Shown here: positions 7,444-63,240 of the stretch, piece after piece
How positions within the stretch are numbered: the stretch's first letter is position 1
Layout: every line of letters starts with the position of its first letter
Source: Siderastrea radians
Taxonomy: Eukaryota > Cnidaria > Anthozoa > Scleractinia > Rhizangiidae
Assembly: GCA_964017195.1 (NCBI GenBank)
Contig: OZ024890.1
Span: 65,832,367 to 65,896,366 of the forward strand
Reading direction: 5' to 3'
DNA length: 64,000 bases
Position numbers and translations under genes: made by a program
The notes under the pieces: model-generated
Seen by the model: the letters and a program-made list of their open reading frames with translations, nothing else
Databases searched by the model: none
Told to the model about the DNA's origin: nothing

Positions 7444-8734
7444 ATGGCAGAGAAAGTGTTACATGCAACAGATGAGAAGGCAAATTTTCAGCGGTTAACA
7501 CGACTTCTGGTGTGTGGAGGAATCACACTTTTAAGGGAAGTGTTTGATTTTATTCACCTACCAGCTAATCTTTCGAGAACATTGAATAACCCTACAACAA
7601 AAGCACGCCTGCAAAGGCTAAGAGACCACAAAAAGGTCATTACCCAGCTAGAATGGAAGCATCTCTACCCATCTCCAGGGTTGTGTGGAACGTCGTCCAA
7701 TTTTGACATCACATTGCTTTTCAAATTGTTTAGAAACATATGCGGATTTACCCCTCCTAAATCTGGATGGGACAATCTACCTAACATCACAGATCACTCT
7801 CTTGAAGCAGACTTAGCTCGTATCAGATTCTACCGCAATGAAGTGTATGGCCACAGCAACGACATGGAAATATCTGATGCTGACTTTGTTGCTCTTTGGA
7901 GAGAAATCAGTGAGGCGTTGTTGAGAATTGCACACAACATAAGTAGTGCAAAGAAAGATGAGTGGGAAAAGGCCATCAATAAATTTCTGAATGAACCTCT
8001 GACTCCAGATGGCGACCAATCCGTAACAGAACTTAAGTCTTGGTACAAGAAAGATATGGATACTAAAGATGAAATGGAAAAGCTGACAAATGAAATGAAG
8101 GAAATGAAAATTAAGGAAGAGCAAAGGAACATGTTACTTATGGAGGAACTGAGAATTGTGCAGCAACAACAGAAACAAACAAACACCACGCTCAAGCAAA
8201 TGATCAATATTGTTATTAGTCCTGAAAGCTTTAAACCAGGTGGATCATCCAGCAATAGCCCAGGCCATTTGCCCAGTGACCCACAACTGCAGGAAGCAGG
8301 TGTGCAGACTCAGGCAGAGTGTGTGATTCCTATAGCTACGGAGCAACCACAAGCAGAAGGTGCAGCCGGCCAGTCTACTGGGGAACTGCAAACCAATCAG
8401 CAAAATTCTCCAGCAAATCTAGACTTTTGGTATGTTTTGTATTCTTTTAAAGAACCCATAATTCTTCTATTAAGATACTTGAGAATTAAGCTAGGAGTTG
8501 ACGTTCAAGACAACAGGCTAGGAAGTCTGGTGATAACAGTCTCCTGCAGCTCACTGGAAGTCCTCGAACAATTATGGGGAGACTACTGCAGTGGCCATCT
8601 GAATGAAGTGGTCCAGAAAACACTTGTAACACAGGAACTTTTGAAGGAGCTTTGCCTTAGTGAGGTGAAACTTACAACCATCATTTCTGAGAAGGAATAC
8701 AACATGTGCAAGGGGTGGTTCATGCATAGATCAG
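7444..8734 (+). CDS. Gene A exon 1: DZIP3-like HEPN, coiled coil, TRADD-N-like
   Basis: A single long coding exon of 430 codons plus one base. The N-terminal part resembles the HEPN domain of DZIP3-type proteins that is abundant in cnidarian immune-type genes. It keeps a HEPN signature R-x5-H (RNEVYGH, Arg131 to His137), the motif that forms the RNase site in active members. Residues 199-258 are charged and heptad-like (KDEMEKLTNEMKEM). A Gln/Ser/Pro-rich stretch (265-325) follows. Residues 325-425 match the pattern of the TRADD N-terminal domain: SLVITVSC, LEQLWGDYCSGHLNEVVQ, LCLSEVKLTTII, EYNMCK. The start ATG is preceded by a likely acceptor at 7391. The donor after TCAG at 8734 leaves phase 1, shared with the next exons. 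Confidence 0.8.
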
Positions 8735-11700
8735 GTAAAACTATTAACCTCTAACTCTTAAAAGCCATGGGAGGGACACTTATTAATAAGCCTTATGAGT
8801 GTGCATTTATTAAAAGAGTGCAAACATTGCACAAAATCCAACACATGTGCCACTTCTCAAGTGATTTTTTTAACTGATCCGTTGCTAGTGGCGATGAGTC
8901 CAATTCATAAAATGCCTATTTTGTTGCTGGTCACTTACGCCAGACATCCAACATGTCAGTGCACCCTTGATATCCGGTTTTCACTTCACCATGCAATCTC
9001 TTGCCCCTTCCAGTTTTCACTCGAAGGCCAGAAAACCAAGTGCAATTTTCTTCTGTCTCAGTTACCATGTGATGATATAAATTTTGTCATGCCATATTTA
9101 TATCTTTTTAAAAACATACTGCTTTAAACAAACTTGTAAACACATTTACACAAACAAACATGTAGTTCAAACAAAATGACTATTATGTTGCTTTTTATGC
9201 ATGTTATAAACGAGTAGTATCAACTTGAAGATGTATCAAGAATCCCTTTATTAATTTCTGGCTCAAAATCGTAAAGTGTCCATACACAACGTGTGTATTA
9301 AATATCTCAGTATAAGCCATTTTTTTTGTAATTAAAAAAAATGTCAGTTCAAAAGCTAAATGTGTTTTTTTTTTATCTTATTATGATCCCTCTCTTCTGC
9401 AGACATTGTGGGCAAACAACTTTGTGTTGAAGAAGAAATCTCAACAAGTGAGGCTGCCAAAGATACCAGAGTACATGTAGGTGCAACTACTGGTGACATT
9501 GATGAAGGTGAACACAGTGAATACCAAGGGGAGGGTATGAAGGGAACTAGACAGAGTGAAACAGAATCAAGTGCTAAGAAAGGTATGTACAACTAATAAC
9601 CTTGACAGCATCATGCAGCTATGTAATATTTCATAACTTGCTCTGACGGAAAAAGATATGGCTTTGCTTTCCCAATAATCACCATCCCTTTCTGTCCTGT
9701 TGCGAAAGACGGAAGTCACAACATAACAAAAAGATAGTCTGAGACAACTTGCTTCTTTCAGGTTAGGAGATTTCATTTCCACAAAAAGGGCTAAGAAAGA
9801 CATTCTATTAATTTTGGCATTAATTAAATTTAGGTGAAATATTAGTATTATTTTCCATTATCAGCACATTCTAATAGACAAAAGCCAAAGTATGAGCCTA
9901 AAAAAGCTGGGATGGGTTTTGAAAGATGACATTTAAACATACCACTGCTAGAGGTATATATTCTTGTTCCTAACTTAACTTTATTGTGTCTTGTTGAGAA
10001 TCTCTCTAGTGACATTGAATCCCATAAAATAACATTATTTTTAGTCCCACAGAGCAATTTTACAAAATTAAATTATAAAAATGTGTTCGTGAATTCATAG
10101 TTAGATAAGTCATGGAGGTATAATACTGCTACATTCTTTAGTGATCCTTTAGTGTGTCGCTCAAAAAATTGACAAAAGAGTTCACTGACTTAAATCTAGC
10201 CTGCTTGCTGGCGGTTTGAGGGTGTTTTATCGCAGAAAAAAACCCTGGAAAACCACCCGGAGTTCGCGATCGCCGGCGCCATCTTGGACTCAAGAAATCG
10301 GTCTGGGGCGCGTGACAAAGCGAAGTAGAGGGGGGCAGGGGGAGAAAAAGAAAAACCGCCCGCCCGAAAACTCGTCTCCTGTGAGTCGCAGATTTTGATT
10401 TCGAGGCATTCTGATTGGTCGATTTACATTTTGGAGACACGTAGAGAAGAGGCAGACAAGTGAGACAAAATAATGTCGAAGGCCAAGGAGAAATCGAGCG
10501 AGCGTTAGATTTTTTTGAAATTGAAAGATAGAAACGTTGTTTTGAAGCCTGAGCAAAGGCAAGCTGTGTGCAGTCTCCGAAAAAGGTGAAGATGTCCTGG
10601 TTCTTCTGCCTACTGGCTTTGGGAAAAGCATGATCTTTAGGTCTTCGGAATCGCAGAAATAGAGAACAATTTTCACATAATCATCGCCAAGTCTGCGCCT
10701 AGCATGCAATAGATATTTTCCCAACCAAAACCATTTCCAGGTTAAACACTCTACATCATACATAAGCTAAATACCTCTTTCCTGTCCATGTTTCTACGGT
10801 GTGGGAATCATCGCTAACTATTGCATAGACGCGCTGATGAAGCTTGCCATTCGGATCTTTGAGAGCAACAAGAAAGCGTTCTTCCAACACTTCCCTTGCG
10901 AAATGGATTCCCAGCTTTCTGGGAATTCCTAGGAATTCCTAAGAATTCCCCAAAATTCCCAACTATGCAAATTAGCTGTGACTAAGAAAGCTTGGAATTC
11001 TTGGGAATTTCTGGGAATGAGAGATATAAGGTCTGTGTAGGCTTGGAATTCCTAGGAATTCCTGGTTATTGCAAGCTATGCAAATTACCTACAATTTAAG
11101 AAGCTTGGATTTCGTGGGAATTTCTGGGAATAGATCTTATAAGATGTAATAAGGCTTGGAATTCCTAGGAATTCCTAAGAATTCTCAAGATCTTTTCAGG
11201 TTAAAGCTTAGTGTTATTTTTGGGCATTTAAGAGTGGCTTAATCCAAGTGTAGATCGCTAAACTGCTTTGGAGTTTTCTCACACCAAGTATCTCTTGACC
11301 TTTGGACAAAAACAAAACAGCCACCGAAAAACAAAACTGCTATCTTATATATACTACAAAGTACACATATCCGTCAAAATATTCAAACTTTCAGATAAGC
11401 ACATTTTGAGTTTCAATTTCTACTTGGAATGTTATGCTTAGTCTGTGCAAGAATTAACCATAAAACAGAAAAAATCATTTGTCAAAGAATAATCAGTTTT
11501 ACTTTACCTTGTTAATTTACATGATCATATCTGTTCAGTTCAGCATTGATTGCATGTCTTAATATTCACGCAGCCACTTAGCAATTTAACGATTAAAATC
11601 CGCAGGTTTCGAACTTTTGCGGGGGTAAATTTGTTCTAAGTCTCCATAGGTCCCAAAAAACGATTCAGTTGTGACTTCTTAGCAGAATGCAATCCTTAAA

Positions 11701-14700
11701 GTGAGCAAGAAAAGTGGAGCCGGAAGTAGCAGCCATTTTGGAATCCTGAATATGTGAAGAGAGACTGGTAATGAATGAGCCGCTTTGGTCAGCAGCCTTA
11801 TCATTGCGGGCTCAGAGAAATCCGGCGCCACAAATTTCAAATGTTCAACACATGTTTCCTTGGATTTCCTATTCTTTCAAGCTTAAATGATGTCTCAAAG
11901 CAACAAAATTTGGATATCTACTCTTAAGAAGGAGGTACGTTTAAAAGAAAATGATTTGTAATGATAGATTGGCTTCAAAATTAACGATTTTAAGAAGATC
12001 ATGTTCTCTCCTTTCTTCTTGAATTCGAAGCTATATTTAGATGCCGAACTAGCTAGTTACATTTGAGGCAGGTTTATTTAACTAAAGAAGCAGTTATGGC
12101 ATAGTTGTGCAGTTTATAGAGAAGTTAAAATGAAGCATCAAATATAATGTTCTCCAGTGCCTTTCCACTGCAGTGTGTTTCCATCGCTTTAGTTTAAAAA
12201 GGACACAAGATAACTCTGATGTTTTGAGTTTACAATGTCTTGATCTGAAAGCAATAATAGAGATCATTTTCTAGAGAGCTGAAAGAACAGAACTGTTAAC
12301 TGAACACAACAATGACTCAGAACTGATTTTAATCACACAATGTTCTGTTCTGCTCTACTAGGTACAATATTCAATTCATGATCAGCTGCTGTGAGAACAG
12401 ATGTGACACTCATTACCAGAACACTGCAGTGTCAAGTCAAGAGTAGCCTGCTCAATATTAAAGCTAAGTCACTTTTAATAACTACTCAAACTCATAACCA
12501 GGACACAAGGCAATTGTAAATGTATTGTAAGTTGTCTCTAATCCACTCTGATTGAACACAGCAAAATATTTTGTGAAAGAAGAAAAACCAAGAAAATGAC
12601 TTTGTTGTCTGATTCACTTTGTGTATACCGATGAAGCTTTATTTAAAAGAAGTATTCAGAATTAAATAACTGTAATTTTTCCAATGTTGAATTCAATTTT
12701 CTTCCAGTCACTGACTGTGTTGACAATTCTTGAAAATGTATTCACTGATGTGAATTTCAGAGGACAATACATACCTGTAAGTCATTTACATATGTCCAAG
12801 AAATATAGTCTTCAATATGTCATATAAAGACTCTTGTGAACTTTGTGGAGATGTTATTTTAATCACAGCTGCACTGCGTCATTACAAGATGTAGTCTCCA
12901 GGTTATTTTCCACTGCGTCAGTACAAGATGTAGTCTCCAGGCTAGTTTCCAGAGCGCTGAATCTGTGGTGAATTAATGCTCTAAATATATTCACAAGAAA
13001 AGGTTTTAAGGCTTTATAGTACAGGCATTAAGTTTAAAATTTTCAATAAATCAAAACAATGTTGAATTTTGTGGCCTGGGTGACAAACTTGTAAAGAATC
13101 CTTAAAATTTTTCGAATAAATACTTAATCAACTTTAAGTTTGTTTCTTGTTTGATGTGCATAATTAAGATCCTAGTAGTAACTATTCTCTCTAGGGGCTC
13201 CGCACAAAAAAGCCTTAGAACGCTGATTACGTAACCCTAGCATGCTGCGTTCAGTCCGTGGCTATCCATCACGTGTCTCATTAGTATGGGGCTCTTATAT
13301 AAGGCCACTCCCTTGTCGCGATAGCTCATTCAGTCTTTTCGGTGTTTCGAATGCTTCTTTTCGCGTCCCGCCCACCTCCCCGCAGCGATGAACCGGCACT
13401 CCCCCAGGAGCTCCCCGCTCCTGACCGCCTTAGGCTGAGTCTCCCATATCTTATCTAGTCTAAGGCATTGTTTGCGGACAGCCCCGGAGAGAATATATTA
13501 CTATTCTCAGTAATTCCCAGAATTCCTAGGAATTCCTAATTCAATTTGTTTCTCAGATTTTATTTAATCCTCTCAGATTCCTATGAATTCCTAGGAATTC
13601 TTAGGAATGTTATCCAAGCTAATCTCAGACCATGCAAAGCTTGGAATTCCTAGGAATTCCTAGGAATTCCATGTTCCAATTACCGTGAAAATTCACACCT
13701 TCATTCCTAAGAATTCCTAGGAATTCCTAGGAATTCTTAGGAAAAAATTCCTAGGAATTCTTAGGAAATTCCTAGGAATTCCTAGGAATTCTTAGATTCA
13801 TTTCGCAAGGGCTTTGTTCGGCGGAACTGTAAATAAGCACGGCTGGCTCCCCCAGTACTCTGCTAACGTTCTCATCAGTGAGTTCCATTCCGGTACAGAG
13901 ACCTTCCAGTTGCGGTATCTTGTCGGAAACTATACTGTTCAACGGGCAAATTACCAACACAGGATGAACGGCCGCCCTCCCTCTTTGCGATTCCGTAAAA
14001 ATCATGCTTTTCCCAAAGCCACTAAGCAGAACAGCCAGGAGATCTTCACCTTTTTGTAGACTGCTCACGGGTAGCCTTTGCTCAGGCCTCAAAACAACGT
14101 TTCTATGTTTCGATTTTAAAAAATTCTAACGCTCTCTCGATTGCTCCTTCGACATTACTTTGTCTCACTTATCTGCCTCTATCTGCGTAACTCCAAACTG
14201 ACGATGATTGGACGAAGTCAAAATCTGCGACTCCCTCCCCCCCTCACTTTGTCACTCGCCCCAGACCGATTATCGCGCGCATCCAAGATGGCGCCGGCGA
14301 TCGCGATAAAAACACCCTCAAACCACCTGCAAGCATGCTAACTTAAATCCAATCACAATTAAAGCCACGGATGACATGTACGGTAACCTTATCGTGTAGT
14401 ATAAAAATAATATACGTGGTATTTTACCAGGTTTACAGCGCAGTCACGTGACGCATCGCTAGTGACTTGATGGGGCATGGGCTCTGTAATCATAAATTAG
14501 TGTTTAATGTATTCTATAGCTTTGGAACCTCCAGTGGATAAGGACCATTCTTCTTTTTGCAGAACCCCGTACGTCAAGGGAAAGAAAGTCGGGAATCCCG
14601 CTTTGTCTCCCTAATAACTGGGAGTGGGATTCATGGACAGAAAAGTGTAATAAAAAGGGAGACAGGCGTTCTTCCCTTTATGTGATCGAGGAGGCACTTG

Positions 14701-17700
14701 AGCAACTCAGGAGGATAAAAGGTATGTCCGTTTTTCATTTGTAATCTTAGTTTATCTTTTTCAAAAGAGAATACGAGGAATAAAGTTTTCTTTAGCTAAA
14801 CTGTTCTGCTGAGTCTTATTTAATGATCTAATACCTTCCATCTTTCTTTAACATAACGTGTCACGTGTTCTAGGACAGCAGCAGCTTAAACGTTTGACTC
14901 TTAATGAGATCTTGCGCATAATAACAGCAGGAAATTTGTGTGCTCATAGCGTCGAGCGAAATAACATTTTTAAAGTATTATAATAATTTTTTTTTTTTGG
15001 AATGAAGTTCTTTTCAGTGGACATGTTTTCAGTATGGCGGCCATCTTTCCAACCACCTCGCTTTTTTCCATGCCATTAACAACATTCGCTAGCATCACAT
15101 AACAAATTTACTTTTAGATAACCGATGTCGTTTTATGCTCCAATAGGTCCCGTGTGTGTGGTGTCTATTGCTGGTACATACAGGAAGGGGAAGTCATTCG
15201 TATTGAGCGAAGCTTTTAACCAGCCTGGTGTCTTCCCTCTCGGACATGAAATGGTGGCTGAAACAATGGGAATCTGGTTATGGATTGTACCTGAGAAGTA
15301 CAAGGTTTGCCCAAATTTGATAAGAACCTTTATTGGATAGTTATCCCGTATTAATGTTCAGAAACAATGGCTGGGGAGAAACAGGACTGTGAATTTGATA
15401 TCATGTAGTCTGCTTTTGGTTACTTCTTTGTAGCCTTCTTTATATTTTACTGTTGTTGGTGCATGTTTTAGGATTCTAATGGCCGGGAGTTTACAGTGGT
15501 GTTGCTTGATTCTGAGGGAATTAACTCTGCAGCCAGTGAAGGCTTTGATGATCACCAAATCTTCACCTTAACTGTTTTGCTGGCATCCGTGCTGATTTAC
15601 AATTCCCAAGGTGTTCCTACAAGACACGATGTAGAGGGCTTAGAGTATCCTTTTTCTTTCAATCAAAGCCTTTTAGTCAAAAACATCTTTTAGATCTTAT
15701 TTAACTGTCCATTGAAGTGGCATCATGTGGGGTCATCCCAAGGATTTTTTGTTCAATTAAATACTGACTTTAACGTGAAATTTGTTATCCATTTGGAGAG
15801 TGGAATGAAAGGTTTAGACTACATGGTATTTTCACGCAAAATGATTGACAAGTTAACTGCTGGATTAGGATTTTGTTGCATTTTTAACATGTCAGTTCAC
15901 AAAAGCCAACTGGAGAAAATATCGATAGATGCTTCTTAGAGTGGTGACTATAATGACTACTTTTGATGCCAAAAAATTTCTTTAACACTTTACAGCTTTA
16001 TTGTTAAACTTGCTCAAAGAATTCAGATACGATCAAATGCTGGAGCAGTTGGGGTGGGCAACGACATTGAGTTCTTTCACAAGACATTTCCATATTTCAT
16101 CTGGCTACTAAGAGATGTAATACAGTCCATTCCGAGCGACTGTAAAGACATCAAGGATTACTTCTTGAAAAAGGTCAGAATTTGATATCTGATCGATCGT
16201 TTACTAAGTGTGCCTTCATTTGTCTTACGACACCCAATATATATTGATTTTCAGGCAGGCATGGAAATTTACCTTCAGTGGCACTCGCTTGGAGCTTCAG
16301 AGCCACTAGATTTTTTTAAATCTTAAAATGTGGGAGTCAGCAAAAGACATCAGATATTGCAGTCAGTCAATTGTCTCAAATGTGGCGTCGCACATTTTGT
16401 TCTGGAAATGATGTAATATGTTTTCGTTCCTACGTCGCCAATTAAGAATTCTCCAAAAAAAGAAAAAAAAAAAGACATCGCAGTGTCAAAATTCCAAATT
16501 CATTGTTAGCATTGCATGCTGATTTGTCTGCGATTGTAATTAAGTGTGAGCAACACCTAAATAAGGGGGAAGGGCTAAGGCTGTTTAAGTATCAAGGGGT
16601 CAGTTTAACTGCAACACCTTCGAAAGCTGGTAATTTCATTGTCTGTAACGTCTCGGTTATGACGAGACGTTACTACTGCAGAATAATTTAATTTCTCTTC
16701 CGTGACCACGCAAAACCACCTTTTTGGAGGCTCAAAAGCAATCACGTTTCCGTATTTCTAGGAACAACTCAATAAAACTATTAGTTACAACTGACATTAA
16801 CTGGAAATTGAAGCCCATGCTAGCACTAAAGCATGGACTAGACAAACACAGATCCGGCTAGTGTGAATACAATTACTTTGTTCGTTTACTAGGTGTTTAA
16901 AGAACAGGGTTCATCAGCCTCCGGTCATACAGGCAAGCAAGTCGCCGAGAGCATATTACGCCTGTTCCCTGGGTTTGATGCATTCACGTTGCCTCCTCCT
17001 ACAATGGATGTTGAATTGATGAAAAGCCTCAACGAGCACTGGAGTAGGAATGATCCCCGGGCCAATCCTGTATTCTGGAGTTGTTTAGATAAATTCAAGC
17101 TCTTGATACGAAGAGTTCTTGCTCCTAAACACAGCTTCAATGACGGGGAATATGTCACTGGAGAAGGTAGAGTCTACAGTAAAAGCCTATGACTCGGTGT
17201 GATCAATCAATCAGTTAGTCAGTCAGTCAGTCAGTCAGTCAGTCAGTCAGTCAGTCAGTCAGTCAGTCAGTCAGTCAGTCAGTCAGTCAGTCAGTCAATG
17301 AATCAATTAGTCAATGAAGTGATTAGTTCATGAAATTGAGATATGTTTAAACAGGTGTCCAATTAATAAAATACAATAAAAATGCGTGAAATGTCCCTCA
17401 GCCCGTCTAGGCCAGATAGTAAATTTTGCTAAACTGTTTTGCATTTTGAACCATCGGTTCTCCATTTTTTTTAATGACAGACCTACATCAAAACTGCAAA
17501 TATCCAACGAGAAGTCTAATCGACTTAGCTTTCTTGGTAATATTTGCGAGGCAAAAACAAGAAATTATTTGCCGTAGTTTGAAAAACGGGAGCCAGTAGC
17601 TGGTCTGTTGCTAAAAACGAAATGAGCCGGAAATGAAATTTGTACGAACTCAGAGAAATAATTGAGTGGAGTTGAGCACATCTTCGAACGGTATAACGGT

Positions 17701-20700
17701 TATTATTACAAACTGGACTAGGTATATTGGATTTCTAGCATTTTGATTGGCTGAACGGAGCTAGGCTATCAGCTCATATACCTGCTGCGACAAATATGGT
17801 CAATAAACACTCAACAACAAAGTGAGCTGAAAGTTTTTTCCTCGCGAGCAACCCGACGAGAAAAATGGACGAGAAAAATCACTTGGCAGCGAATTTAAAT
17901 TAAGCAGAAATGCCCACATCGTCACCAACAAGTATCACCAACAGCGTCGTCTAACACAAATCAAAATTGTTTGAAGAAACTGTGCAGAAATAGAAATTTA
18001 AGCATTAAGCGTCGTGTTTACAATTAATTTCTTTCATCGATCGTCACGTCGATCATTGAAATTGAACACGGTAGGTTTTATCAGGAAAGCTTTCCACTTC
18101 AAAATATCACTGAAGACAAGACATAAAATAAAACACAGTGAAATGGGGCAGGATAATTTATTAAAAACTATCACACATTCATGGCGAGTCGGTGCGAAAA
18201 TCATGAAGCAGTCTAAACAAGTACTAAAAAAATACAGCGGCAAACTACCAAGAAGGAAGGAAGGGCGAGATTTTTTTCGCCTTTAACACGCCAAATTGAC
18301 ACTGGTTTACCTGCACTCGTTGTAGCTCTGTGTTCCAACAGGTCCAAATGCTCAGATAGAAATCGGATGCCATGTAAACGGAGTTGAATCGCTTTTCCAG
18401 TTGTTTGAATGTTGTTTTTAAGCTTACCATTCCGTCCGCAACCTCTAAACCGAGAACAACTGCATTTTGCACTTTGCATGTTCTTCACTACAGTAATCTT
18501 GCTTCTGAGCTGCATGGAAATTACCTCTTCAAGTTCAAATTTGTTCTGTCTTCAGTTCGATGAAACACGCACATGATGGCTCCGTTGTGCGAACAGATTA
18601 CAAACTTGTTCAGTTTCAACTCCAGCAGCTAATATGGTGAAATTGTACAGCTTCCATCCGCTTTGAACGATGATAACAACAATGTTTCAGGAAAAATCAA
18701 ACATGTACCATATTTCAAAGCCAATAATTAGAAGATTTCTTTCCAAAACTTGTGCTGCTTTGTTCACTTTCGAGCACTGAGTTTTCATTGATTCATTCAG
18801 CTTTGCAATGAAACGCTGCAACACTTCGCAAGGTTTTGGCGCCTTTTTCGTTCAGTCGTGTGAGCGATTCTTGTTCCGTTTAAATTTCTTTTCTCATTTT
18901 TCCCGTTCTTTCTTGTCTTTTTTTTTAATAGTGGTTAAGTTTTTAATAAAACAATTATTCTACTCGGGCTTGCTGGATATCAAATGATTATAACCAACTC
19001 GGCGCTACGCGCCTCGTTGGTTATCTATCATTCGATATCCAGCGCGCCCTCGTAGAATAATTGTTAAGTGTAGAACTTCGGCCTCAGATATTGCTTAATC
19101 CCATTTCCTGTCTCACGATCCCGGCAAATTTTAATTTATTGTAGGTCTCGCCGCTTTGGTTCAGCACTACGTTAAAGCAATAAACACCCCCGGTGCTATT
19201 CCTAATGTTGAAAAGGCTTGGGACACATTCGTGGACCAAAAATGTTGTGAAGCGAAACAGGCCGCTCTAGGGACGTACATCGCTCTTCTTACGTCACAGC
19301 TATCTGGTGAACTGCCATGTGACAACAACAAGATTCGTCTGAGTCACAATGCCGCACTTCAGGCGTGCGAAGAGCAGTTCGTGAAGGATGTTGCAGGAAT
19401 TTCTACAGAAACAGTGGAGAACCATACCCGGGATCTCAAAGTAAGAAAAAAGCAACTGACTACGCTTTTTTTTAACTTTTAAAATTGTTTTTAACAATTG
19501 ACATTTACATGTACTTTGTAGTAATTTTCCCGTTTGTTTGCTTTTTTGGTTGGATGTGATGCTACATGAACTTGTTGTTGTTGTTTTCATTAATGTTAAC
19601 GTTTGATTTGACACAAAAAGCCCTTTTTCGGTATGCTTCACGTCGATAACACGCATTTCACACAAAAAAATAGTAACTAAAGATAAAATATAAAATAAAA
19701 CCATGGGTAGGCACGGACTACGAAAGTGATTTGGGTAGTGTGGTTATAATTTTTGGCCTTTCCATTGAATTAGAATCTAAATGCATTAGGAGGGAATATT
19801 GAATTTTTGAAGGCTGATATTTTTCACCCCAGAAGAGGACTGATCTATTTTTCTTGTGACTAGATATCCGTGGAGGGGAAATTAAACTCTTGGCTTGCTG
19901 ATAATGCAAACTCGACAAGGCAAGTTTGCAGAGATCTTCTTGTCCAGCTTAAAAAGCGTCACTTGGATCCAGTCCTACAGCAACTACAAGGGAAAGCAGG
20001 GGCCAAAGTATCGTTTGATGACATCATTGGTGGCTATGAAAGAATTAAAGACGACTATGAGACGCATGCAACAGGAGCCAAAGATGTCATTACCGCGGTA
20101 TTCTACGAATTTCACCCAGTAAGAATATATTTTACCTCTTTTGTGTATGTCTACTGACTGTATTGAAGAGACATTAAATTCTTTGATCGACATCAAATTT
20201 ACCTTGCGAGGGAGGCCCGAATATGATGGGGGCAATAACGGTTTGCACTTCTTCCTCTCTTCCAGTCCCATAGGATCAACAAGAAAGTCACGGGGGTTTT
20301 TCTATAGTATTCTATAGTTAGTATGTGAGTCCGAGCCACCCAATGTGGTGGTACTTAAATACCTCTTTTGCTGAATTAATCAATTGGATGTGATATGTAA
20401 TGCGGTATCTTGAAACATTGCATTGATACGCTCAATCCTAAGCACTCATGATCACAATTTATGTCTAAACGAAAGAAACGTTTTATAATCGTTTTAGGAA
20501 CTGGTGAAAGAAAAAGAGCAAAACCTGGGACTGCTAAGACAACTAAAAGACTTTGATGAAAATCTCGCTCGAGAGTTGGCTGCTAAGGCTTTGCAAGATC
20601 AAGAAAGGAAGTGGCTGCAGGTAAGAAGCCAGAAAATGTTGGCCGTGAAACTTATTATTTAGTGCACATGTGTGTTTACATAGCACGATGGATCGAAGCT

Positions 20701-22566
20701 TAAAACTTAGTCTTTTAGAAGCTTGAGAGTACGTTTTGTCTTAATCAACCCTGACCGTTATTACGCTAAACCTAACATTGCAATTATGGAATACCCCCTA
20801 CTTGCCTCAAATGAAGCATCCTAAAACATCCTGAACCATTTACACCAGTTGACCTACACCCTCAATCATTTCTATCGCTTTTGACATTTACCAAGGAAAT
20901 AGGAGGAGAAAGCTGGTTTCAAAAGGTCTGAAATGATAGGGAAAAAATTAAAAATATTCAACGCGTTACAATATGAAATTTTCTATTTTGGGGTGAAAGG
21001 CGTCCAAAAGTAGTCATTGGGACCCAACCAAGGCTTTTAAGTTGCAACAACTTCTTCTCTACCTTAAAGTTAAGATTTTGTTTACGGTTTACACAATTTC
21101 TAAACCACTTAGTGTGGGCACTTTAACCAGTAGAATATAATTAAAGTGTACCTGATCCAAAATATGGTTTCCTTAAGTCTAGAAGTAACTAAAAATAATG
21201 AAACTCACCAAATTTTTAACTGAACGCTTATCTTCTTGAAGCCTGTTTTCTTGTTTGTTTGTTTTTTATCAGATAAGTGAATCATTCATTTCAACTAAGA
21301 AAATGTGCGAAAAATGGTGAATGAGAAATTGCAAGTCGGAGACTCTTTTGCTTTGCAGGAACAGCAGTCACGTTTGCAGCAGGAAAATCGAGAACAGAAA
21401 AGAGAGGTAACAGTTACATAATATGATGCATGGTATATATTTGTCAATAGCTTGCATGACTCATTATTTGAGTCGCCAGAACTCAAAATATACTTAGTCA
21501 ACTGCACAGCTGTACGAGAAAAATAGTTCTTTCCCCCAAATTTAACTTAGTATTGTACTTAACAGTTTTTTCATATGCGCTGAGTTCTCCGTATTGAGTT
21601 ATCCTAGAGGTCAGAAAATTTATGACTGCGAGTCTGACTTGAGTTGGAGTTCAGTTTATGAAAAAAAGAATGACAAAAGAGCTAGTGCTCAATTACTACT
21701 TGGTTATTTAGTTTAGATGTAAGGCACAAGTTTAGCGGTTATCTTCCAGACAAGGTTCGAAAACATTGTTTAACAGCGTTCTCGTAGTGTTCAGTCTAAT
21801 TCCCGTCCGTCCGAAATTAAAGGAGAGAAGACTCAAGAGAACATAATTAAATATCTTTTTCAGAAAATAATAAAATACTTGTATAATCAAATTTTTCTGA
21901 TTTTTGTATTCTTAGATGGAAATATTGATAAAAAATCTAGACGAGGAAAAGAAAAGATTCCGTGGGCGGATGCAAGGCGAAATGAGCGCACAACGAGACC
22001 AAATGAAGAATTTGATGGATGCAAACATGAAGCAAGCACAAGAGTATCGGAAAGCTTTCATTAAAGAAAGGGAAGCTTTTCAACGTCTCTTCAAGAAAGT
22101 ACAGGAAATTAACGAAGAAAACATGAAAATGATAAAGCATCTGTCGGAGCTAGTCGCCAAGAAAGATAAAGACAAGGACGAACTTCTTCAGCGGATGAAA
22201 GATGAAGATGAAAAAGGGAAAGAGGCTGTAACACAGAGGATGAATGCCAAACACGATCAAGAGATGGAGGCAATCCGTCGCGACTTGACTGCAAAGCTGG
22301 ATGAAGCCTCAAAAGGTGGCGAAACAAGGTTAATAAGACGAACCAAAGATGCAGAGAATCTGCATGGTAAGATAAAACAAACATCTGAAGCTCAGAAAAC
22401 GGTTGAAGAACCCAGTTTTTTAAACAAGGCGGCCAAGTTTGTAGGACGTGAAGGTGATCCCGTGGCCGGTGCTGTTGTCTCTTTCGTCGCATCTGCTTTG
22501 GCTCCAATTGATGCACCAGTCGCTGCCGGTGTAAGTGCTGCCACTGAGTTTTGTAGCATTATGTAG
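7444..22566 (+). CDS. Gene A: HEPN / TRADD-N-like / guanylate-binding protein fusion with CaaX end
   Basis: Predicted exons: 7444-8734, 9403-9582, 14563-14721, 15147-15304, 15472-15644, 15996-16173, 16893-17166, 19145-19440, 19864-20118, 20498-20620, 21359-21406, 21916-22566. All have AG/GT borders and matching phases, giving 1261 residues. Domains in order: DZIP3-like HEPN (about 40-165), coiled coil (about 199-258), TRADD-N-like (about 325-425), acidic linker (431-490), a short cap with IPLCLPNNWEWD, GBP GTPase (544 to about 750), GBP helical region, long charged coiled coil, and C-terminal CSIM. GTPase motifs: G1 GTYRKGKS at 553-560, switch Thr583 (ETMGIW), G3 DSEG 609-612, G4 LLRD 691-694. 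The family hydrolyses GTP and coats pathogen membranes. HEPN and TRADD-N suggest RNA cleavage or death signalling (inference). Splicing is predicted only; intron-1 read-through would end at 8752 and give a 436-residue HEPN/TRADD protein. Confidence 0.72.
9403..9582 (+). CDS. Gene A exon 2: acidic linker
   Basis: A 180-base exon between a polypyrimidine tract ending CTGCAG and the donor GTATGT. It keeps phase 1 on both sides and encodes 60 residues rich in Glu, Ser, Thr and Gly, without a recognisable fold. It links the TRADD-N-like domain to the GBP part. The open frame also continues through the donor to a stop at about 9594, so an isoform ending here is possible. Confidence 0.65.
9618..9865. 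repeat. Dispersed repeat copy in gene A intron 2
   Basis: This stretch resembles 31788-31935: both contain CGGAAGTCACAACA, GGT(T/A)AGGAGATTT, AGGAAAGA/AAGAAAGAC, GGCATTAATT and ATTATTTTCCATT in the same order and orientation. It is probably a decayed copy of an interspersed element. Confidence 0.55.
10905..11185. repeat. Palindromic AGGAATTCCT satellite, left cluster
   Basis: Clusters of GGAATTCCTAGGAATTCC and variants at about 10918-10960, 11041-11066 and 11157-11190. The unit is its own reverse complement. It sits just inside the left arm of the 4.2-kb transposon and mirrors the larger cluster at 13505-13800. Confidence 0.85.
11640..13190. other. Transposon interior, nothing recognised
   Basis: No open frame above 60 codons with a motif. 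A 30-bp direct repeat is visible near 12875-12950 (CTGCGTCA(T/G)TACAAGATGTAGTCTCCAGG twice). Confidence 0.5.
13195..13500 (+). promoter_or_regulatory. Possible core promoter or solo-LTR remnant
   Basis: GCTCTTATATAAGGCC at about 13289 is a good TATA box, and TCAGTC at about 13330 lies at initiator distance. A GC-richer stretch follows with ATGAACCGGCACTCCCC at about 13388, opening only a short frame. The arrangement fits a promoter inside a mobile element or a solo LTR; an alternative promoter for the GBP half of gene A is conceivable, but the next GBP exon (14563) has no in-frame ATG. Confidence 0.3.
13505..13800. repeat. Palindromic AGGAATTCCT satellite, right cluster
   Basis: Dense tandem copies of CCTAGGAATT, self-complementary, ending just inside the right arm of the 4.2-kb inverted-repeat transposon. 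Such sequence can extrude hairpins. Confidence 0.9.
14563..14721 (+). CDS. Gene A exon 3: conserved cap exon before the GBP GTPase
   Basis: Encodes 53 residues containing IPLCLPNNWEWD, a basic GDRR and LYVIEEALEQLRRIK. The same module precedes the GTPase in gene B (32798-32954) and gene C (53847-53982), so it belongs to this GBP subfamily. In gene A the exon has no in-frame ATG and an in-frame TAG lies upstream (about 14518), so translation must enter from an earlier exon; the phase-1 acceptor fits exon 2. Confidence 0.78.
15147..16173 (+). CDS. Gene A exons 4-6: GBP GTPase core
   Basis: Exons 15147-15304, 15472-15644 and 15996-16173. Exon 4 holds G1 (GTYRKGKS, with the Arg at the place of the catalytic arginine finger of human GBP1) and the switch-I segment ETMGIWLW. 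Exon 5 holds G3 (DSEG) and SVLIYNSQGVPTR. Exon 6 holds FFHKTFPYFIWLLRDV, where LLRD replaces the usual TLRD guanine-specificity motif. The junctions have phases 0 and 2, identical to those in genes B and C. Confidence 0.88.
16893..22566 (+). CDS. Gene A exons 7-12: GBP helical region and CaaX tail
   Basis: Exons 16893-17166, 19145-19440, 19864-20118, 20498-20620, 21359-21406 and 21916-22566. They start at VFKEQG, pass through GLAALVQHYVKAINTPGAIPNV (the start of the helical domain in GBPs) and end in a long charged coiled coil. The last exon (216 codons) is longer than in gene B and adds KDKDKDELLQRMKDEDEKGKE-type heptads plus an alanine/valine-rich segment before CSIM. The coiled coil may drive oligomerisation as in other GBPs. 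Confidence 0.85.
17211..17297. repeat. (GTCA)n microsatellite
   Basis: About 20 nearly perfect GTCA units in gene A intron 7. Confidence 0.98.
18942..19072. mobile_element. Palindromic MITE end
   Basis: A hairpin with arms ACAATTATTCTACTCGGGC...GGATATCAAATGAT and their reverse complement around a short loop with GCGCTACGCGCC. This hairpin is a recurrent transposon end in coral DNA (from memory). The other end may be near 17690, but I could not match it securely. It lies in gene A intron 7. Confidence 0.6.
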
Positions 22567-25291: not shown

Positions 25292-27804
25292 GGACTATCT
25301 ACCTATCTAACTAACTACAAAAATTTAATAACAACAAATTCAAAATAACAAAAGAAAAGTCTGCTTTTCATGGAGGCCGTGTCTAAAATTCACTTACATG
25401 TAAAATTTAGATATTACTTTAAACTGTGCCGACTTAATTTAGATTTGAAATCGGCCAGTGAAGATGCTTGTCTTAGGTCTACAGGTAAGTTGTTCCACAA
25501 CTGAGCTCCGCTGTACGAAAAACTTTTTTTGAGATAATCAGTTCGAGGTTGTGGAAGAACTAATTTGTTTTCGGTATTCCTTAAACGATAAGCACTAACA
25601 TCGTCACGATATACGAATCTTGATCTCAAATAATCAGGAGTCATACCATGTAATGTTTTATACATTAGGATAGACTTCTGTTCCAATCTTTGATAATAGA
25701 GTCTTCGCCACCCCAGTGTCCGGAACAAATCATCTAAATTACTATCATAGCTCGCAGACATTAGGGTACGAGCTGCGCGGTTTTGAAGCCTTTGCAGTTT
25801 TTCAGCAAGGCCCTTGTTACAGCTTCCCCACACTACGTTGCAATAATCAAATTGTGGTTGAATAAGGCTATTATAAACTTTGATTAAAATATTAAATGGA
25901 GTGAGATGCCGAATTCGTTTAATTGCACCAATGGCACAAGCTATCTTCTTAGAAATGTTTTCAATATGACACTCCCAGTTTATATTTTGATCAACATAAA
26001 CTCCGAGGGATTTAGCGGAGGTTACTTGTTCTATTGCGTTCTCATTTATAGTAAGAGAGGGACTTTCCGTAAATTGTGATAACTTCTGCCTTGATGCAAT
26101 AAGCATAAACTCAGTTTTCGTCATATTTAGAGTAAGCTTGTTAGCAGACAGCCATTCGTACACATTTCTCAGGTCGTGATTAAGGCGATAATTTATATGC
26201 TCAATGTCAGTGCTAGCAAGTGTTAGGCTAGTATCATCTGCGTACATTCTGGGTTCCGAATATGTCAGACAGTGTGGTAAGTCATTAATATATATCAAAA
26301 ACAGAAGAGGTCCCAAAATTGTTCCCTGGGGAACACCACATCTTAGACATTTCGGAGTTGACTTACAAGAATTAATATGACAAATCTGTGTTCGATTATC
26401 TAAATAAGAAACAAACCATTGATGACTGGTCCAACAAATCCCATAGTATTGCAATTTTCGCAACAAAATATCGTGATCTACTGTATCAAATGCCTTTTTG
26501 AGATCTAAAAAGACTACGGCATTAACAAGACCACGGTCTATATCCAAGGCCCAGCTATCTGTAGCTTCGATAAGTGCGGTGAGCGTGGAATGCAGAGACC
26601 GAAAACCAGATTGATGGCACGAGAGAAAGTTGTTTTTTGTTAAATAATGATAAAGTTGATCGTAAATTATCCGTTCAAAGACTTTGGCCACAACTGGAAT
26701 TACTGATATTGGCCGATAATTCGTCGGATCAGAACGCTTCCCAGAATTTTTATACAATGGAGTAACTCTGGCAGATTTCCACTCATCGGGAAAGATACCC
26801 GTCAGTAGGGATTGATTAAACATATGAGTGAGAGATTCCGCCAGTAAGTCAGGACATTCCCTTAGAAGTTTCGCTGAAATATTATCTAATCCTGTTGCCT
26901 TTGACCTACAGAGCTTTGATAGTAGTGCAAAAACACGTGTAGGTGTTGTTTTTTCAAAAACAAAATTTTTATCAGTTGCGGTAAGAAATTCGTCGAAGGA
27001 TTTATCAACTTCTGTTACGTCTCCACTAAGGCTTGGCCCAACTTCTGTGAAAAAGGAGTTTAGCATTTCTGCTATATCTGTTTGATCTTCAGAATTTACC
27101 CCACTATACTCCATTTCATTAATAACAGTTTTATTGGATTTTCGTGAGGTCAGTTCATTGATTGTTTTCCATGTTTTCCTTTGATCCCCACAACAATTGT
27201 TGAAGGCATTTTCATAATACGCTTTTTTAGCGCTGTTAATTTCCCAATTCACTTGATTTTTAACCATTCGAAATTGGTTCCAAATAAATGGATCCTTTGT
27301 CTTAATAGCCTTTCTTTTGAGGCGGTTTCTGAAATTCATCCGCTTTTTTAAAATAGTGGTTATCCATGGTGATTTAGAATCTCGTGTCCGTTTGGTCTTC
27401 ATCGGTGCGTGCTTTTCACAAACATTCAGGAATAATTCTTTCCACCTCCTCCACATATCATTAGGATCATACAATTTCTTTATATCATCCCAGGGTTGGG
27501 CTAAAATATCCGCATAGAAATTTGCGCTATTAAAATGTTTAAACTGTCTATATGTTATCAAGTTAACTCCCTTAGAGAAAGTGGGAATTGAAATTTTTCG
27601 ATATGCATAAACTAAACTGTGATCACTTATGGCGACATGAGACACCCCTGAACAATATATTTCAGTTTCAAAGAAGAGATAATTATTCGCAAGCGAAGAC
27701 AATCGCTCTGAGGGACGAATTAATACCAAACGTTGCCTAGTAAGATCTGAAGTCATTTGCAGTTGTTCTATATTGTAAGAGAGCAATGGTTTTAAATTAG
27801 ACAA
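25200..27804 (-). mobile_element. 5'-truncated LINE (CR1/L2-like) with reverse transcriptase
   Basis: A 796-codon open frame (25414-27804, minus) begins within the C-terminal part of an apurinic-type endonuclease (SDHSLVYAYRK) and continues into a full reverse transcriptase: FLDLKKAFDTVDHDIL, GVPQGTILGPLLFLIYINDL and YADDTSL (catalytic Asp pair), then the typical thumb and C-terminal region. The N-terminal endonuclease catalytic half is missing, so the copy is 5'-truncated. The 3' end reads AAATAAAGTTATC followed by repeated TTATC units (GATAA on the plus strand, 25223-25250), as CR1/L2-type LINEs end in short tandem repeats. The frame has no stop, so the insertion seems recent. Confidence 0.9.
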
Positions 27805-31165: not shown

Positions 31166-32797
31166 GTCTCCTCTCTCTCCAGTTTATACAAGGCAAGATA
31201 CTCTCTTTCCAGTTAATACAATCATCATAGACACGTCATTGACACAGGAAAATTTTCTCTGATAAATTTTACGAAAAGGTACGAGGTTTGGTGATTATTC
31301 GTCTAGCCGTTTAAAAGTTGTCTCCTCTCTCTCCAGTTTATACAAGGCAATTAAGATACTTTGTAAGGCCTAATTCAAACGTCGAACATTTCATGTGCCG
31401 AACCTAACGCGATTAAGTAAAAGCTGAGAGATCTTGATAACCAATATCACTAAACAAATAAATGTGCCCGTTCAAAACAGAGCTTGTCTTCGAGTCTTGA
31501 AGTGTTATTCCAAGAAACATAAAGATCCTGTTGCACGAATTAAAACTCGCATACCGTGTAAACTATGCACGTTGAGTTCGTTTGTTTAAAGGCATATACA
31601 TATATCTCATCATTAATTTCTAATCCACCTGAGCTTCCTACAACATTTCAGTTTCAGTTTCGAGGGATAAACACGTTTATTACAGTTTACAAGTGTAGAA
31701 GAAGGCGAGTGACATTTATACATGTTCTTAGAATAGATTACGGGATTCCCCGAAATATACGTATTTCAGTTTCAAATGCAGCCAACATATTCGCGAAAGG
31801 CGGAAGTCACAACACAACGAAAGAGAGACGTCGTTTTTTCAGGTAAGGAGATTTATTGTTTAAACATAACTAGGAAAGACCAACCATTAGGCATTAATTT
31901 TCGGATGAATATTATTATTTTCCATTGTAAACAAACCTTCCATATTCCTCTACTGGTTTACAGAAACCAGGGTCTCTCGAAAAGTTTACAGATCGCCACT
32001 CGGTCGTAGCGAGAAAGGGGGTTAGCATATCTAATACGTACACCCGTATAAAGCTTCACAGAAGTTGTGTGTGAATCCATGTAGGAATTAATGTAAAACG
32101 TGTGGAAACGCACTTGAGGGCTTGAGAAATTTGTTTTAAATATACCATTCATGAATGATGTCGCGCCGAATAGCTGAAGTATAGTCTTGAGCGAAAACAG
32201 AATTTCGAAAACGTAAATGTAGTTGTCGAAAACTGAAACTTCATTCCAGAATTTCAGTTGCTGTGTGTGTGGTAAGGGAAATTGAACACGGAGGTCAGCT
32301 AATAAGCGCAGGGAAGTTTTGGCAATGTTCATGCAAACTAACACTTCATGCAGGCAATTTACATAATTTATATTTCCATCGTCACACAACTTTCGACTTC
32401 AGTAACGTCAGTATCCCGTAACGGCATCGTCCCATGGCGCGAGTTATTAACGCAACGCCATCGGTACTAGCGTTTTGTGAAAATTGCAATTTTTTTATCG
32501 CAGAAGTTGTTGGTAAAGTCTAGCTTCATTTTAGTAAGCAAAATAATATTTCTAATAAATAAATAAATTATTATTAATAAGTTAATTAATTTATAAAAAC
32601 CTATGGATGGTTTAATGGTATTCTATCTTCCGAATGAACCTCGATCCTTTACAAGTCCAATCGTGGGAAATGAACGTGCTCTCTTTTTTTACCTATGAAA
32701 TAAGCTTTTCAGCAATCGCGACCTTAAGTGCAGAACCAGATGACAGAATTTTTGAAACATAAACTGACCACAACTCTCACCTTGTAAATCAGGAAAC
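31166..32797. other. Upstream flank of gene B, no gene seen
   Basis: Contains two copies of GTCTCCTCTCTCTCCAGTTT (about 31165, 31320) around a 100-bp block (ATCATAGACACGTCATTGAC to CGTCTAGCCGTTTAAAAGTT) that recurs at 35628-35728, and the dispersed repeat at 31788-31935. No coding region; a HEPN-type exon like that of gene A was looked for and not seen here. Confidence 0.5.
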
Positions 32798-35700
32798 ATG
32801 GAATTCAGACGAAATTCGGACTTAGCGATCCCACTTTGTCTGCCCAACAACTGCCACTGGAATCCAGCAACCGGAGAATACAGCAAAACAGGGGGTGGGC
32901 GTACGTCACTTTATGTCGTCGACGAAGCTCTTCAGAAACTCAGGACCGTAAGGGGTAAGCTTGCTAAAACTCTTTTCGTTGCGTGTAGCAACCAACAGAT
33001 ATGTTGGTCACAGATTCATCACCTCCTTTCTGCCTTCCAGGTTTCCTGTATTTGCCGCACTAAGCGCAGAAAAATTTAGCGTATGTTCAGTGAGGGCACG
33101 GTGGTGTAGTAATGTTGCACTTAACCTCCTGTAAATATTGAAAACAGCTTTCTTCCTTCCAGCAATGCTTCTTTTGTTCTCGTCAAGCTTTCTTTCTTAA
33201 CCCTATTCTGCCTGGGATTTTTTTGAGTTTCTGAGCCTGGGGGGGGGGGGGGGGGGCACTTTGTGCCCCCCTATAGATCTCGAGAAGTATTAAAGCTCTT
33301 GCGATGAAACTTGGCACGTTTGTAGCACGCCATTAGCTTAACAGATTGGGCCTATGACGTGTCAATTAGGACGTGACACGACCAGTCCGGGATCGTTATC
33401 AATTTTGATAACTCAGAGCAAAACAAACCATTAGCCAATCGCCTCTCAAATTTTTGTGCACGTGACGCTATTTGCGAGGCATCGGCCATAAATTCAATAT
33501 GGCGGACGAATGCGAGACGATTTCGGAAAGGCTGAGAAGTAGTTACATTGTACCTTCTTCAAGTGAATTTCATGTTTATATCACAGGAATATGAAAAGAA
33601 CATTATTTGAGAATGGTATTACGTATTAGACGTCCCTTCCCTCCGAACGCGGCAAGCTGCCGGAGCGCGGAGACGCAGCTGTATTCGCAGGCTAAGAAAT
33701 TATTTCCAAAAGCTGTGACATGAATTTCGAATACTTCATTGACCCAGCTCGATATCCTGTTAGTAGAGTCTCCTTCGATCTAGAAAAATCGGAGGAAGAT
33801 TGAAGGAGACTTTGCTCGCAGGATACGACGTCAAATTTTCTCAAGCAACGACTGTTCTGAGGGAAATGACAAGTGAAGGAAGACAACGATTATTCTATTA
33901 ACAAAGCGTTTATTCATTCATTTGATTACACTTTATTTTCACAGTGTTCGCTCTGTTCTTGCTTCTTTTTCTTTGCCGTGTTCATGGCAGGGAAGGTGAA
34001 CGTTCATCAGTCTGTAGTAAAAACGAAATAATCACCATGAACAAATATTGCTTTCACAAACGACGATACAGCTTATACTTGTGCTTGTATATTGAAGTAT
34101 TCTATTGCACGGGAGGTGATTGAGGCTGCAATTGTTCATGTATTTAAGACTTAATTTGCATGTGCAGAAGTTTGTTTAGAACGAAAGATATAAGCTTAGC
34201 TCTAAAGAAGCTACAACTTTCAATTTCTTGACGAAAAAGGTCTATAGCTACACTCCGTGATGCGCAACACAACATCCTGCAACAGAATTAAACACAATAA
34301 GCCGCGGCCGGGCCGGCTAAACTTTAGAATACCCGGGCACATATTTGCATGTCATTGAATATTAAACAATTGTTTCTTTTGTATTCATATGGCTCGTTCT
34401 TCAAAGCATTGAAAGATATGTAGACAAGTGGCCAGGTATTCTAAAGTCGCTCCGAGAGCAGCTCATTAAAACCACATTTAGTCGCTTAACAGACGACCAG
34501 ATTTGGTCAAATTTAACTAAGAATAACACACAGGCACTAAGCCACAAGATATCAGAAAAAGACAGATTTGAACTCGAGATCAAAGTCTTAAAGATGCGAC
34601 GCCTAACCTCATAAACTGCTCAATTCAGTCATCATTCAAACATCCTCCAAACTAAACCCACTACAAAAATATAAGAAGCAAAATTGGTCGAAAGATCGAG
34701 ATATATCAGACGCGGCTTACAAAGACGTGAAGTAGGAGTCGTGCAGGTCCTCTAATACCATTTTATAGCCGTAAGCTTAAGCTTTAAAGCTAAAATTTGT
34801 CACAGAAATTCAAACGCATCTGCGTAACAAAGTCTGGGGATTACCACAAAAATCTATTTAACGAAGCATCTTAGACATGACGGATCAAGCGACGCAGTCA
34901 ATAGGATCACAAAATGGCGGTTAGTGATGCAATCGGACTGCAAATAAAAATACCCCAGTGCACTTTTTAAATAAATCGTGCACAACGATAAACAAACGAC
35001 AAATCGAAAGGAATAAGGTTAAAGATTACGACATAATTTTTGTGGATGCCACAAAAATCTTTAAACAACTCAAATTTAACGGCAAAGTGGAAAAACATAC
35101 CTGATTTGGACGCAGAATCTGTAGTGTTCTTTCTCTTTGCGAGTAAAATTTGCTTCTTCATCGTCTGCCTTCATCCGCCATCTTTGACACACGTGGAGTT
35201 CATTCCTTCCCTGGCTTTCTCGAATAGAACTATTGGTATATAACTCGAGTATTACCGAACAAATAACGAATAAAGCTGACCAAGTACGAACATCCCCGAT
35301 TTCTGAAATGGCCGCCATGTTGTGACGTAACATGGTTATCAAAATTGATAACGATCCCGGACTGATGACGTCACAATAACGTCACAAACCCGGCATTTTG
35401 AATTTGAGGCCGTCATCTTGAATCCCAAACCTGCCGTCATACAGCTGACAATGACGTCACCAAAAAATATATGATTTTGTTCTAAGAAACATATTTAGTC
35501 AAAAGAAGCACACAAAAGTAAAAAAAATTAACTTCTTACAAACGGAGGGGGAAACCTGAAAAAGACTGAAAAAAGACAGAAAATAGTCAAAATACACTTC
35601 TGAGTAGACGGTTGCCATGGAAACGTCAATCATCATAGACACGTCATTGACACAGGAAAATGTTCTCTGATAAATTTTACGAAAAGTCACGAGGTTTGGT

Positions 35701-55543: not shown

Positions 55544-56096
55544 GTATCCTTTCAGTGAAATCCTCTAAATGATGAATGATTTTTGTGGTCAAAAATTCAA
55601 TTTTCAGTTTCTTTTTAGTCCCCCTTCGAGGACACAGCCCACCCACTCTACTAAAGAGGTTATACTTCTTATGACATTCGAACCTCCCCTTGGAAGGGCG
55701 GGGTGAGTTGCATCCTGGCGACATGACAATTTCCACTTGCATGTTATTCGTTCTTTACGCCAACAGTTATTACGTGTCACCTACTCGTATTTATTCTGTT
55801 TCACAAAATGCATGGAAACCAGTAGTATAGTAAAAGGGGGGTTCTGTAACAGCTATAGTACTGGGAGAGTTATTTTCACATTTTAAACCGCCCACATAAG
55901 AAACAATTTTTAACAATGTAGAGAGAGAGAAAAGTTTTATAACAGAGAGTTCAATTCCCGTTTTTGCACCGATAACACAAAACAAGTTTTATAAAGGTGG
56001 AAAGAATGTTATTGAATCACTTAAAAACCGTAATAATATATTTTTGCAGATGTAACTGTCACAGAATTCCAAAAAAAAATTTCCATTTAGAGATTT
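55544..56096. other. Junction between gene C intron 3 and the viral element
   Basis: The GBP intron starts at the donor GTATCC (55544). The first viral-like reading frame starts at 56097. The left viral terminus should lie in between; I could not identify an inverted repeat because the right end is outside the window. From about 56000 the base composition becomes A-rich like the viral genes. Confidence 0.4.
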
Positions 56097-62371: not shown

Positions 62372-62379
62372 TATATATT

Positions 62380-63200: not shown

Positions 63201-63240
63201 TGTGCGTATATATTATATTCAGAATTTTTTTTAATTTTTT

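What the first reader, a model, noticed from the sequence alone, without database searches (positions are those of the whole stretch)
7444..22566. A single predicted gene fuses HEPN, TRADD-N-like and GBP GTPase domains
Seen: exon 1 (HEPN + coiled coil + TRADD-N-like), exon 2 and exon 3 (GBP cap) all join in phase 1, and the GBP cap exon in gene A has no in-frame ATG and an in-frame stop upstream, so the GBP must be read from upstream exons. Known: GBPs are interferon-type membrane-coating GTPases; HEPN domains are often RNases; TRADD-N links death receptors to signalling. Inference: the fusion could couple detection of a coated vacuole or polymerised GBP to RNA cleavage or cell-death signalling in one chain. 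I am not aware of this architecture being described.
Basis: partly seen in the sequence, partly recalled or inferred. Interest (0 to 1): 0.92.

Follow-up and report, generated by a model that had tools for sequence, protein, structure and literature searches.

The report
Coral HEPN–TRADD-N–GBP fusion gene
In this coral genome a membrane-coating immune GTPase appears to have lost its usual front end and to be joined in frame to a predicted RNA-cutting and death-signalling adaptor, and relatives of both halves are still present, so the origin of the fusion can be read from the DNA.

Summary
Twelve exons (7444-22566), GT-AG introns and matching phases give a 1261-aa chain: HEPN_DZIP3, long helix, TRADD-like N domain, acidic linker, GBP GTPase, GBP helical domain, and CSIM at the end. 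Comparison inside the same genome supports one gene. Exons 1+2 are a duplicated cassette: exon 2 lies downstream of exon 1 in 5 of 6 paralogues examined, and three of these have Death, caspase or DED-like exons further on that also start in phase 1. The GBP half has a near-identical duplicate, A', 232 kb away, preceded by two exons of the usual coral GBP kind (UIM-like). Whole-genome searches find these two exons only at A', apart from one weak match, so gene A has lost its own. A HEPN-TRADD-N cassette thus replaced the GBP's front end by a break inside an intron (9699-10164). No transcript was available. TRADD-N fusions to GBP, and to HEPN, were reported in 2021 (PMC8195603), so the kind is known; I did not find this three-part gene or its origin in print. 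The RNase and death-signalling mechanism is inferred.

The parts
7444..8734 (+). Exon 1: start codon, HEPN_DZIP3, long helix, TRADD-like N domain (aa 1-430); phase-1 donor
   Evidence: four other copies covering aa 1 or 2 to 430 in the genome; dN/dS 0.28-0.38 against them
7561..8013 (+). HEPN_DZIP3 domain (aa 40-190)
   Evidence: Pfam PF18738 4e-43
7834..7854 (+). HEPN R-N-x4-H motif (R131, N132, H137)
   Evidence: invariant in the 18 aligned sequences; fits the Rx4-6H motif with N after R of PMC3710099 (passages)
8008..8172 (+).
   Evidence: AlphaFold2 model, pLDDT mostly 54-77 here; no coiled-coil program was run
8182..8727 (+). TRADD-like N domain, split by a disordered stretch (aa 247-428)
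   Evidence: Pfam PF20694 over aa 352-392; structural match to 1f3v_A over aa 247-426
8735..9402 (+). Intron 1, alignable in part to intron 1 of HEPN-TRADD-N paralogues
   Evidence: blastn hits to par2, par4, par5, par7 of five compared
9403..9582 (+). Exon 2: 60-aa acidic linker, phase 1 in and out; inherited with exon 1
   Evidence: found downstream of exon 1 in 5 of 6 paralogues examined, 53-72% identity
9583..14562 (+). Intron 2, carrying the fusion breakpoint
9699..10164 (+). Breakpoint interval: HEPN-cassette homology ends at 9699, GBP-copy homology starts at 10164
   Evidence: par2 and par4 stay alike about 280 nt past the point where the window leaves them
10190..14347 (+). Composite repeat with long inverted arms inside intron 2; 10893-13813 is absent from A'
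14563..14721 (+). Exon 3: GBP cap, no Met, phase 1 in
15147..15304 (+). Exon 4: P-loop GTYRKGKS at 15173-15196, ETMGIW
15472..15644 (+). Exon 5: LLDSEG motif
15996..16173 (+). Exon 6: LLRD motif
16893..17166 (+). Exon 7: end of GBP G domain
19145..19440 (+). Exon 8: GBP_C helical domain
19864..20118 (+). Exon 9: GBP_C helical domain
20498..20620 (+). Exon 10: GBP_C helical domain
21359..21406 (+). Exon 11: GBP_C helical domain
21916..22566 (+). Exon 12: C-terminal part, CaaX-like end CSIM (22552-22563), stop
   Evidence: fast-changing on A's branch

Best explanation
A single chimeric coral immune gene. A HEPN-TRADD-N-linker cassette (exons 1-2, with intron 1 and the start of intron 2) came to lie upstream of one member of a tandem GBP cluster, in place of that copy's UIM-like 5' exons. 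Both the old and the new upstream exon end in phase 1, so the GBP reading frame was kept. Shown: open gene structure, domains, related loci for both halves, the breakpoint interval, intact reading frames and selective constraint. Inferred: one mRNA and one protein are made. Proposed mechanism (about 0.35 likely in this form): the GBP part binds GTP, is anchored by a prenylated CSIM tail and assembles on a pathogen-bearing or damaged membrane; assembly crowds the N-terminal HEPN domains into active RNase dimers, while TRADD-N recruits or releases death-domain partners. Membrane detection thus triggers local RNA destruction and/or cell death in one chain.
For: Splice phases and sites. Exon 2 lies downstream of exon 1 in 5 of 6 paralogues, exon-1 and exon-2 donors in phase 1 in all five. 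Three paralogues have other exons downstream that start in phase 1: Death 2.2e-11, caspase 9e-61, DED 7.9e-8 (below its cut-off). The near-identical GBP copy A' has two UIM-like exons and no HEPN exon within 28 kb upstream. Whole-genome searches with these two exons return only A' for the second, and A' plus one 44% match at E 0.41 for the first. Neither is in the window or the 10 kb before it. Intron 2 has no start exon of 5 or more codons with a phase-1 donor scoring 7/9 or better (0; shuffles 1.95). A against A': 0 gaps in 2315 coding sites, 39 gap openings in 5684 aligned noncoding sites, so about 15.9 expected. dN/dS 0.36 over the first 313 GBP codons; 0.28-0.38 for exon 1 against paralogues.
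Against: No transcript. 0 of the 219 database proteins listed to me join the two halves (of 428 hits only 120 were listed, and candidates are capped and length-limited). The last 458 GBP codons have dN/dS 1.17, with 18 derived replacements in exon 12 on A's branch against 5 on A' (some polarised on one outgroup sequence): relaxed constraint cannot be told from adaptation. Some modelled donors are weak (4/9 at 15644), though A' keeps them. HEPN activity and TRADD-N partners are untested.
Confidence: 0.72

Rival explanations
1. Two neighbouring genes: a HEPN-TRADD-N gene that ends at or near exon 2, and a GBP copy that lost its 5' exons in the rearrangement and is silent or starts from an unrecognised exon.
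For: No transcripts; reading on past exon 2 gives a stop after four codons; A' has a cap exon equally without ATG, so its absence is not evidence of fusion; the GBP tail changes fast. Start exons under 5 codons, or several exons away, were not looked for.
Against: Matching phase 1; no alternative start exon with a good donor in intron 2; the paralogues' Death, caspase and DED exons have no match in the window better than E 0.8; intact GBP frame with 0 indels where about 16 would be expected over both branches, about 8 on A's branch if split evenly; 4 derived replacements on A's branch and 5 on A' in the first 313 codons.
Confidence: 0.17
2. The fused mRNA exists, but the GBP half is a passenger: only HEPN-TRADD-N has a function and the GBP is decaying.
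For: dN/dS 1.17 over the last 458 codons and excess replacements in exon 12 on A's branch.
Against: GTPase motifs and CSIM end intact; dN/dS 0.36 over the first 313 codons; GT-AG at every intron.
Confidence: 0.08
3. Assembly error that brought a HEPN locus beside a GBP locus.
For: The region is a tandem array of similar GBP genes, a setting in which misassembly happens; no reads could be checked.
Against: The breakpoint lies inside a 71.5-Mb contig, within an intron, with a stretch of about 464 bp matching neither parent.
Confidence: 0.03

Closest known systems
DEDD2-clade TRADD-N proteins of cnidarians and other marine invertebrates (Kaur et al. 2021, PMC8195603)
   Same: TRADD-N with N-terminal HEPN in cnidarians, expanded in copy number, fused to variable immune or death effectors; GBP fusions are named.
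   Different: The exact HEPN-TRADD-N-GBP order is not given in the text I read (figures and source data not seen). They propose retrotransposition as one source of fusions; here introns on both sides are kept, so the join was made at DNA level.
Coral HEPN-TRADD-N fusion proteins (Porites evermanni with caspase; Oculina patagonica with kinase, ubiquitin or small GTPase) and Pocillopora meandrina HEPN-ubiquitin
   Same: Same N-terminal cassette.
   Different: None listed carries a GBP.
Coral GBP proteins with UIM-like N-terminus (e.g. Montipora foliosa guanylate-binding protein 6-like, P0055)
   Same: GBP, GBP_C and a CaaX-like end.
   Different: UIM-like N-terminal stretch instead of HEPN-TRADD-N.
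Guanylate-binding proteins 1, 2 and 5 of solved structure
   Same: GTPase motifs and helical domain.
   Different: No fused N-terminal domains (recalled).

Membership tests
Guanylate-binding proteins | GBP GTPase domain with GBP-type motifs | tested here: met
   PF02263 4.1e-41; GTYRKGKS, ETMGIW, LLDSEG, LLRD aligned to GBP2 chain 7e58_A; motif roles recalled
Guanylate-binding proteins | GBP_C helical domain | tested here: met
   PF02841 2.9e-19
Guanylate-binding proteins | GTP hydrolysis and membrane coating | not testable with these tools
   needs biochemistry
HEPN superfamily (HEPN_DZIP3) | Profile match | tested here: met
   PF18738 4e-43
HEPN superfamily (HEPN_DZIP3) | Rx4-6H catalytic motif | tested here: met
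   R131-N132-x4-H137, invariant in 18 sequences; motif described in PMC3710099 (passages)
HEPN superfamily (HEPN_DZIP3) | RNase activity | not testable with these tools
   needs biochemistry
TRADD-N domain | Profile match above cut-off | tested here: met
   24.2 bits on exon 1 against 23.7, but 21.9 in the whole chain; 14 of 18 cassette members match at 0.001
TRADD-N domain | TRADD-N fold | tested here: inconclusive
DEDD2-clade TRADD-N expansion proteins | Constant part joined to variable effectors within one genome | tested here: met
   Death, caspase, DED-like and GBP exons downstream of the same cassette; the joins are inferred from phase and order
DEDD2-clade TRADD-N expansion proteins | Clade assignment by phylogeny | not tested
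   no tree was built

The most novel reading that the evidence does not exclude
A coral has made a one-chain, membrane-triggered RNase: GBP polymerisation on an intracellular microbe's or symbiont's vacuole drives HEPN dimerisation and RNA cleavage, with TRADD-N coupling to caspase or death-domain partners. It arose by swapping a phase-1 front-end cassette, which serves as a general plug for several death and immune effectors in the same genome.
Probability: 0.25. Interest if true: 0.85.

Novelty: new variant of a known kind. Interest (0 to 1): 0.6.

Why it matters
It ties GBP membrane coating to a predicted RNase and a death-signalling adaptor in one protein, a link not known in vertebrate GBPs (recalled). 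It is also a case in which relatives of both halves and the junction interval of a new immune fusion can be read in one genome. That makes the origin of coral TRADD-N domain diversity testable, and here favours intron-level DNA recombination over retrotransposition.

Tried and rejected
Considered: a native GBP start exon in intron 2 (none of 5 or more codons with a donor of 7/9 or better; 2 at 6/9 or better against 8.95 in shuffles; the cassette's own exon-1 donor scores 7 and exon-2 donor 8). UIM-like exons of A lying upstream of the HEPN block (no protein match in the window or the 10 kb before it; no DNA match better than E 0.18; none genome-wide at the expected identity). The start-codon exon of A' itself was not located, so its gene model is open at the 5' end. 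Retrotransposed cassette (rejected: introns kept on both sides). HEPN-GBP fusions elsewhere in this genome: the GBP exon matches and the exon-1 matches lie close together only at gene A; the next nearest exon-1 match to the cluster is about 1.1 Mb away; both lists are lower bounds. Isolated TRADD-N fragment model did not list TRADD, probably because its first strand was left out. Exon 1 by sequence against solved structures gave nothing useful. Origin of the filler at 9700-10163: genome search unanswered; about 160 columns of it match 31793-31926 of the window at 68%, so it may be a repeat.

Literature searches for prior description. From their listings only PMC8195603 bears on it (passages and section 11 read). 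PMC3710099: passages only. The other listed papers were seen only in the listings.
Full report
Setting. The window lies at C4:65832367-65896366 of an 804.8-Mb genome in 439 contigs.

Catalytic residues. The HEPN motif R131-N132-x4-H137 is invariant in the 18 aligned sequences and fits the Rx4-6H motif with N after R described in PMC3710099 (passages). The GBP keeps GTYRKGKS, ETMGIW, LLDSEG and LLRD against GBP2 chain 7e58_A (roles recalled) and ends in CSIM, a CaaX box (recalled as a prenylation signal).

The front half is a cassette. The own genome holds four other copies of exon 1 over aa 1 or 2 to 430 (69-84% identity) plus fragments (98 of 160 candidates scored). In 5 of 6 paralogues examined, exon 2 lies downstream, and the exon-1 and exon-2 donors are in phase 1 in all five; parts of intron 1 align in four of the five compared. 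Within 20 kb downstream, three paralogues have a Death domain (2.2e-11), a caspase (9e-61) and a DED-like exon (7.9e-8, 32.9 bits, below its cut-off of 35.9). With the nearest AG as acceptor, all three start in phase 1, as does the GBP cap. These three joins are inferred from order and phase. I picked the three ORFs by eye from those of 90 aa or more and ran Pfam on them alone; the other three paralogues showed no effector that I recognised. Exon 1 is under purifying selection (dN/dS 0.28-0.38).

The back half had another front. Twenty matches to GBP exon 4 lie on C4:65.65-66.19 Mb, with matches to the cap exon among the rest of the 40 matches; two of the 40 lie elsewhere on C4. One gene, A', at 66.079 Mb, is 93-95% identical to gene A over the aligned exon and intron blocks. 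Before its cap exon lie two exons alike to coral GBP N-termini (best E 2e-10 and 4e-5): 66074144-66074308 and 66077041-66077191. The second carries a ubiquitin-interacting motif (UIM_2 22.0 bits, cut-off 21; UIM 17.9, below its cut-off of 21) and ends in phase 1 before a cap exon that also lacks ATG. The start-codon exon of A' was not located. Of the 26 best GBP hits listed, 15 have a UIM-like pattern in the first 150 residues by a loose pattern of mine. No HEPN exon lies in the 28 kb before A' (best E 2.6). Genome searches with the two exons return A' and one 44% match at E 0.41 for the first, and A' alone for the second. Gene A therefore has no copy of either at the identity expected.

The join. 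Homology to HEPN paralogues ends at 9699, 117 nt into intron 2; two paralogues stay alike about 280 nt further. Homology to A' starts at 10164. The 464 bp between match neither parent; part of it resembles 31793-31926 of the window at 68%. Intron 2 also holds a composite repeat with long inverted arms, shared with A' except for 10893-13813. Because introns survive on both sides, the fusion was made at DNA level, not by retrotransposition. Since A' has the usual coral front, the simplest order is GBP duplication first, then fusion in A.

Is it alive? Between A and A' there are 0 gaps in 2315 coding sites against 39 gap openings in 5684 aligned noncoding sites (from 13814 on, aligned blocks only), so about 15.9 would be expected. 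This counts both branches; about 8 would fall on A's if split evenly. Substitution is 2.8% coding against 4.3% noncoding. dN/dS is 0.36 over the first 313 codons, 1.17 over the other 458 and 0.80 overall. Polarised with eight database GBPs, A has 26 derived replacements and A' 12, with 8 unclear; in exon 12 the counts are 18 and 5, in the first 313 codons 4 and 5 (some sites rest on one outgroup sequence). The GTPase is kept, and the tail has changed fast on A's branch, by relaxation or adaptation.

Database and print. Three protein searches gave 219 listed proteins; 130 match the HEPN/TRADD side, 89 the GBP side, none both. One search had 428 hits, of which 120 were listed. The triple fusion may be private to this lineage, or missing from the data. 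Kaur et al. 2021 (PMC8195603, passages and section 11) report cnidarian TRADD-N with N-terminal HEPN, and TRADD-N clade fusions to GBP GTPases, and propose retrotransposition as one source of novelty. Their source data were not available to me, so the exact triple may be listed there.

Mechanism. GBPs assemble on membranes with GTP (recalled). HEPN RNases are active as dimers in known cases (recalled), and the motif is intact here. The simplest mechanism is proximity: GBP assembly brings HEPN domains together while TRADD-N links to death-domain or caspase partners, some perhaps encoded by sister cassettes. I put this at about 0.35 given that the protein is made.

Noticed in passing
32798-41248: Gene B: a GBP paralogue whose cap exon has an ATG five bases after a CAG acceptor-like site, ending CSVM; no HEPN match lies upstream of it other than gene A's and no UIM-like match in the window.
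   Followed up: partly
53835-55547: Gene C: GBP exons corresponding to exons 3-5 of gene A, the first with an ATG; no match to later exons follows in the window, and an integrase-bearing element lies downstream.
   Followed up: partly
56091-63567: Polinton/Maverick-like element (name recalled): integrase core (1.1e-10) and phospholipase A2-like (1.8e-8) on the minus strand, a large ORF with Endonuclease_7 (1.7e-7) on the plus strand; boundaries approximate.
   Followed up: partly
25414-27804: 796-aa stop-free frame with a reverse transcriptase domain (4.1e-33), minus strand.
   Followed up: partly
10893-13813: About 2.9-kb stretch inside intron 2's repeat, absent from A', with AATTCCTAGG repeats near its ends.
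   Followed up: partly
1753-2868: Long open frames in repeats coding GYSRVYKGIQ-like units.
   Followed up: no
L045 (C4:66071001-66081000): A' and other GBPs form a tandem array; three exon matches on C4 have identical scores, suggesting repeated segmental duplication or retained haplotypes.
   Followed up: no
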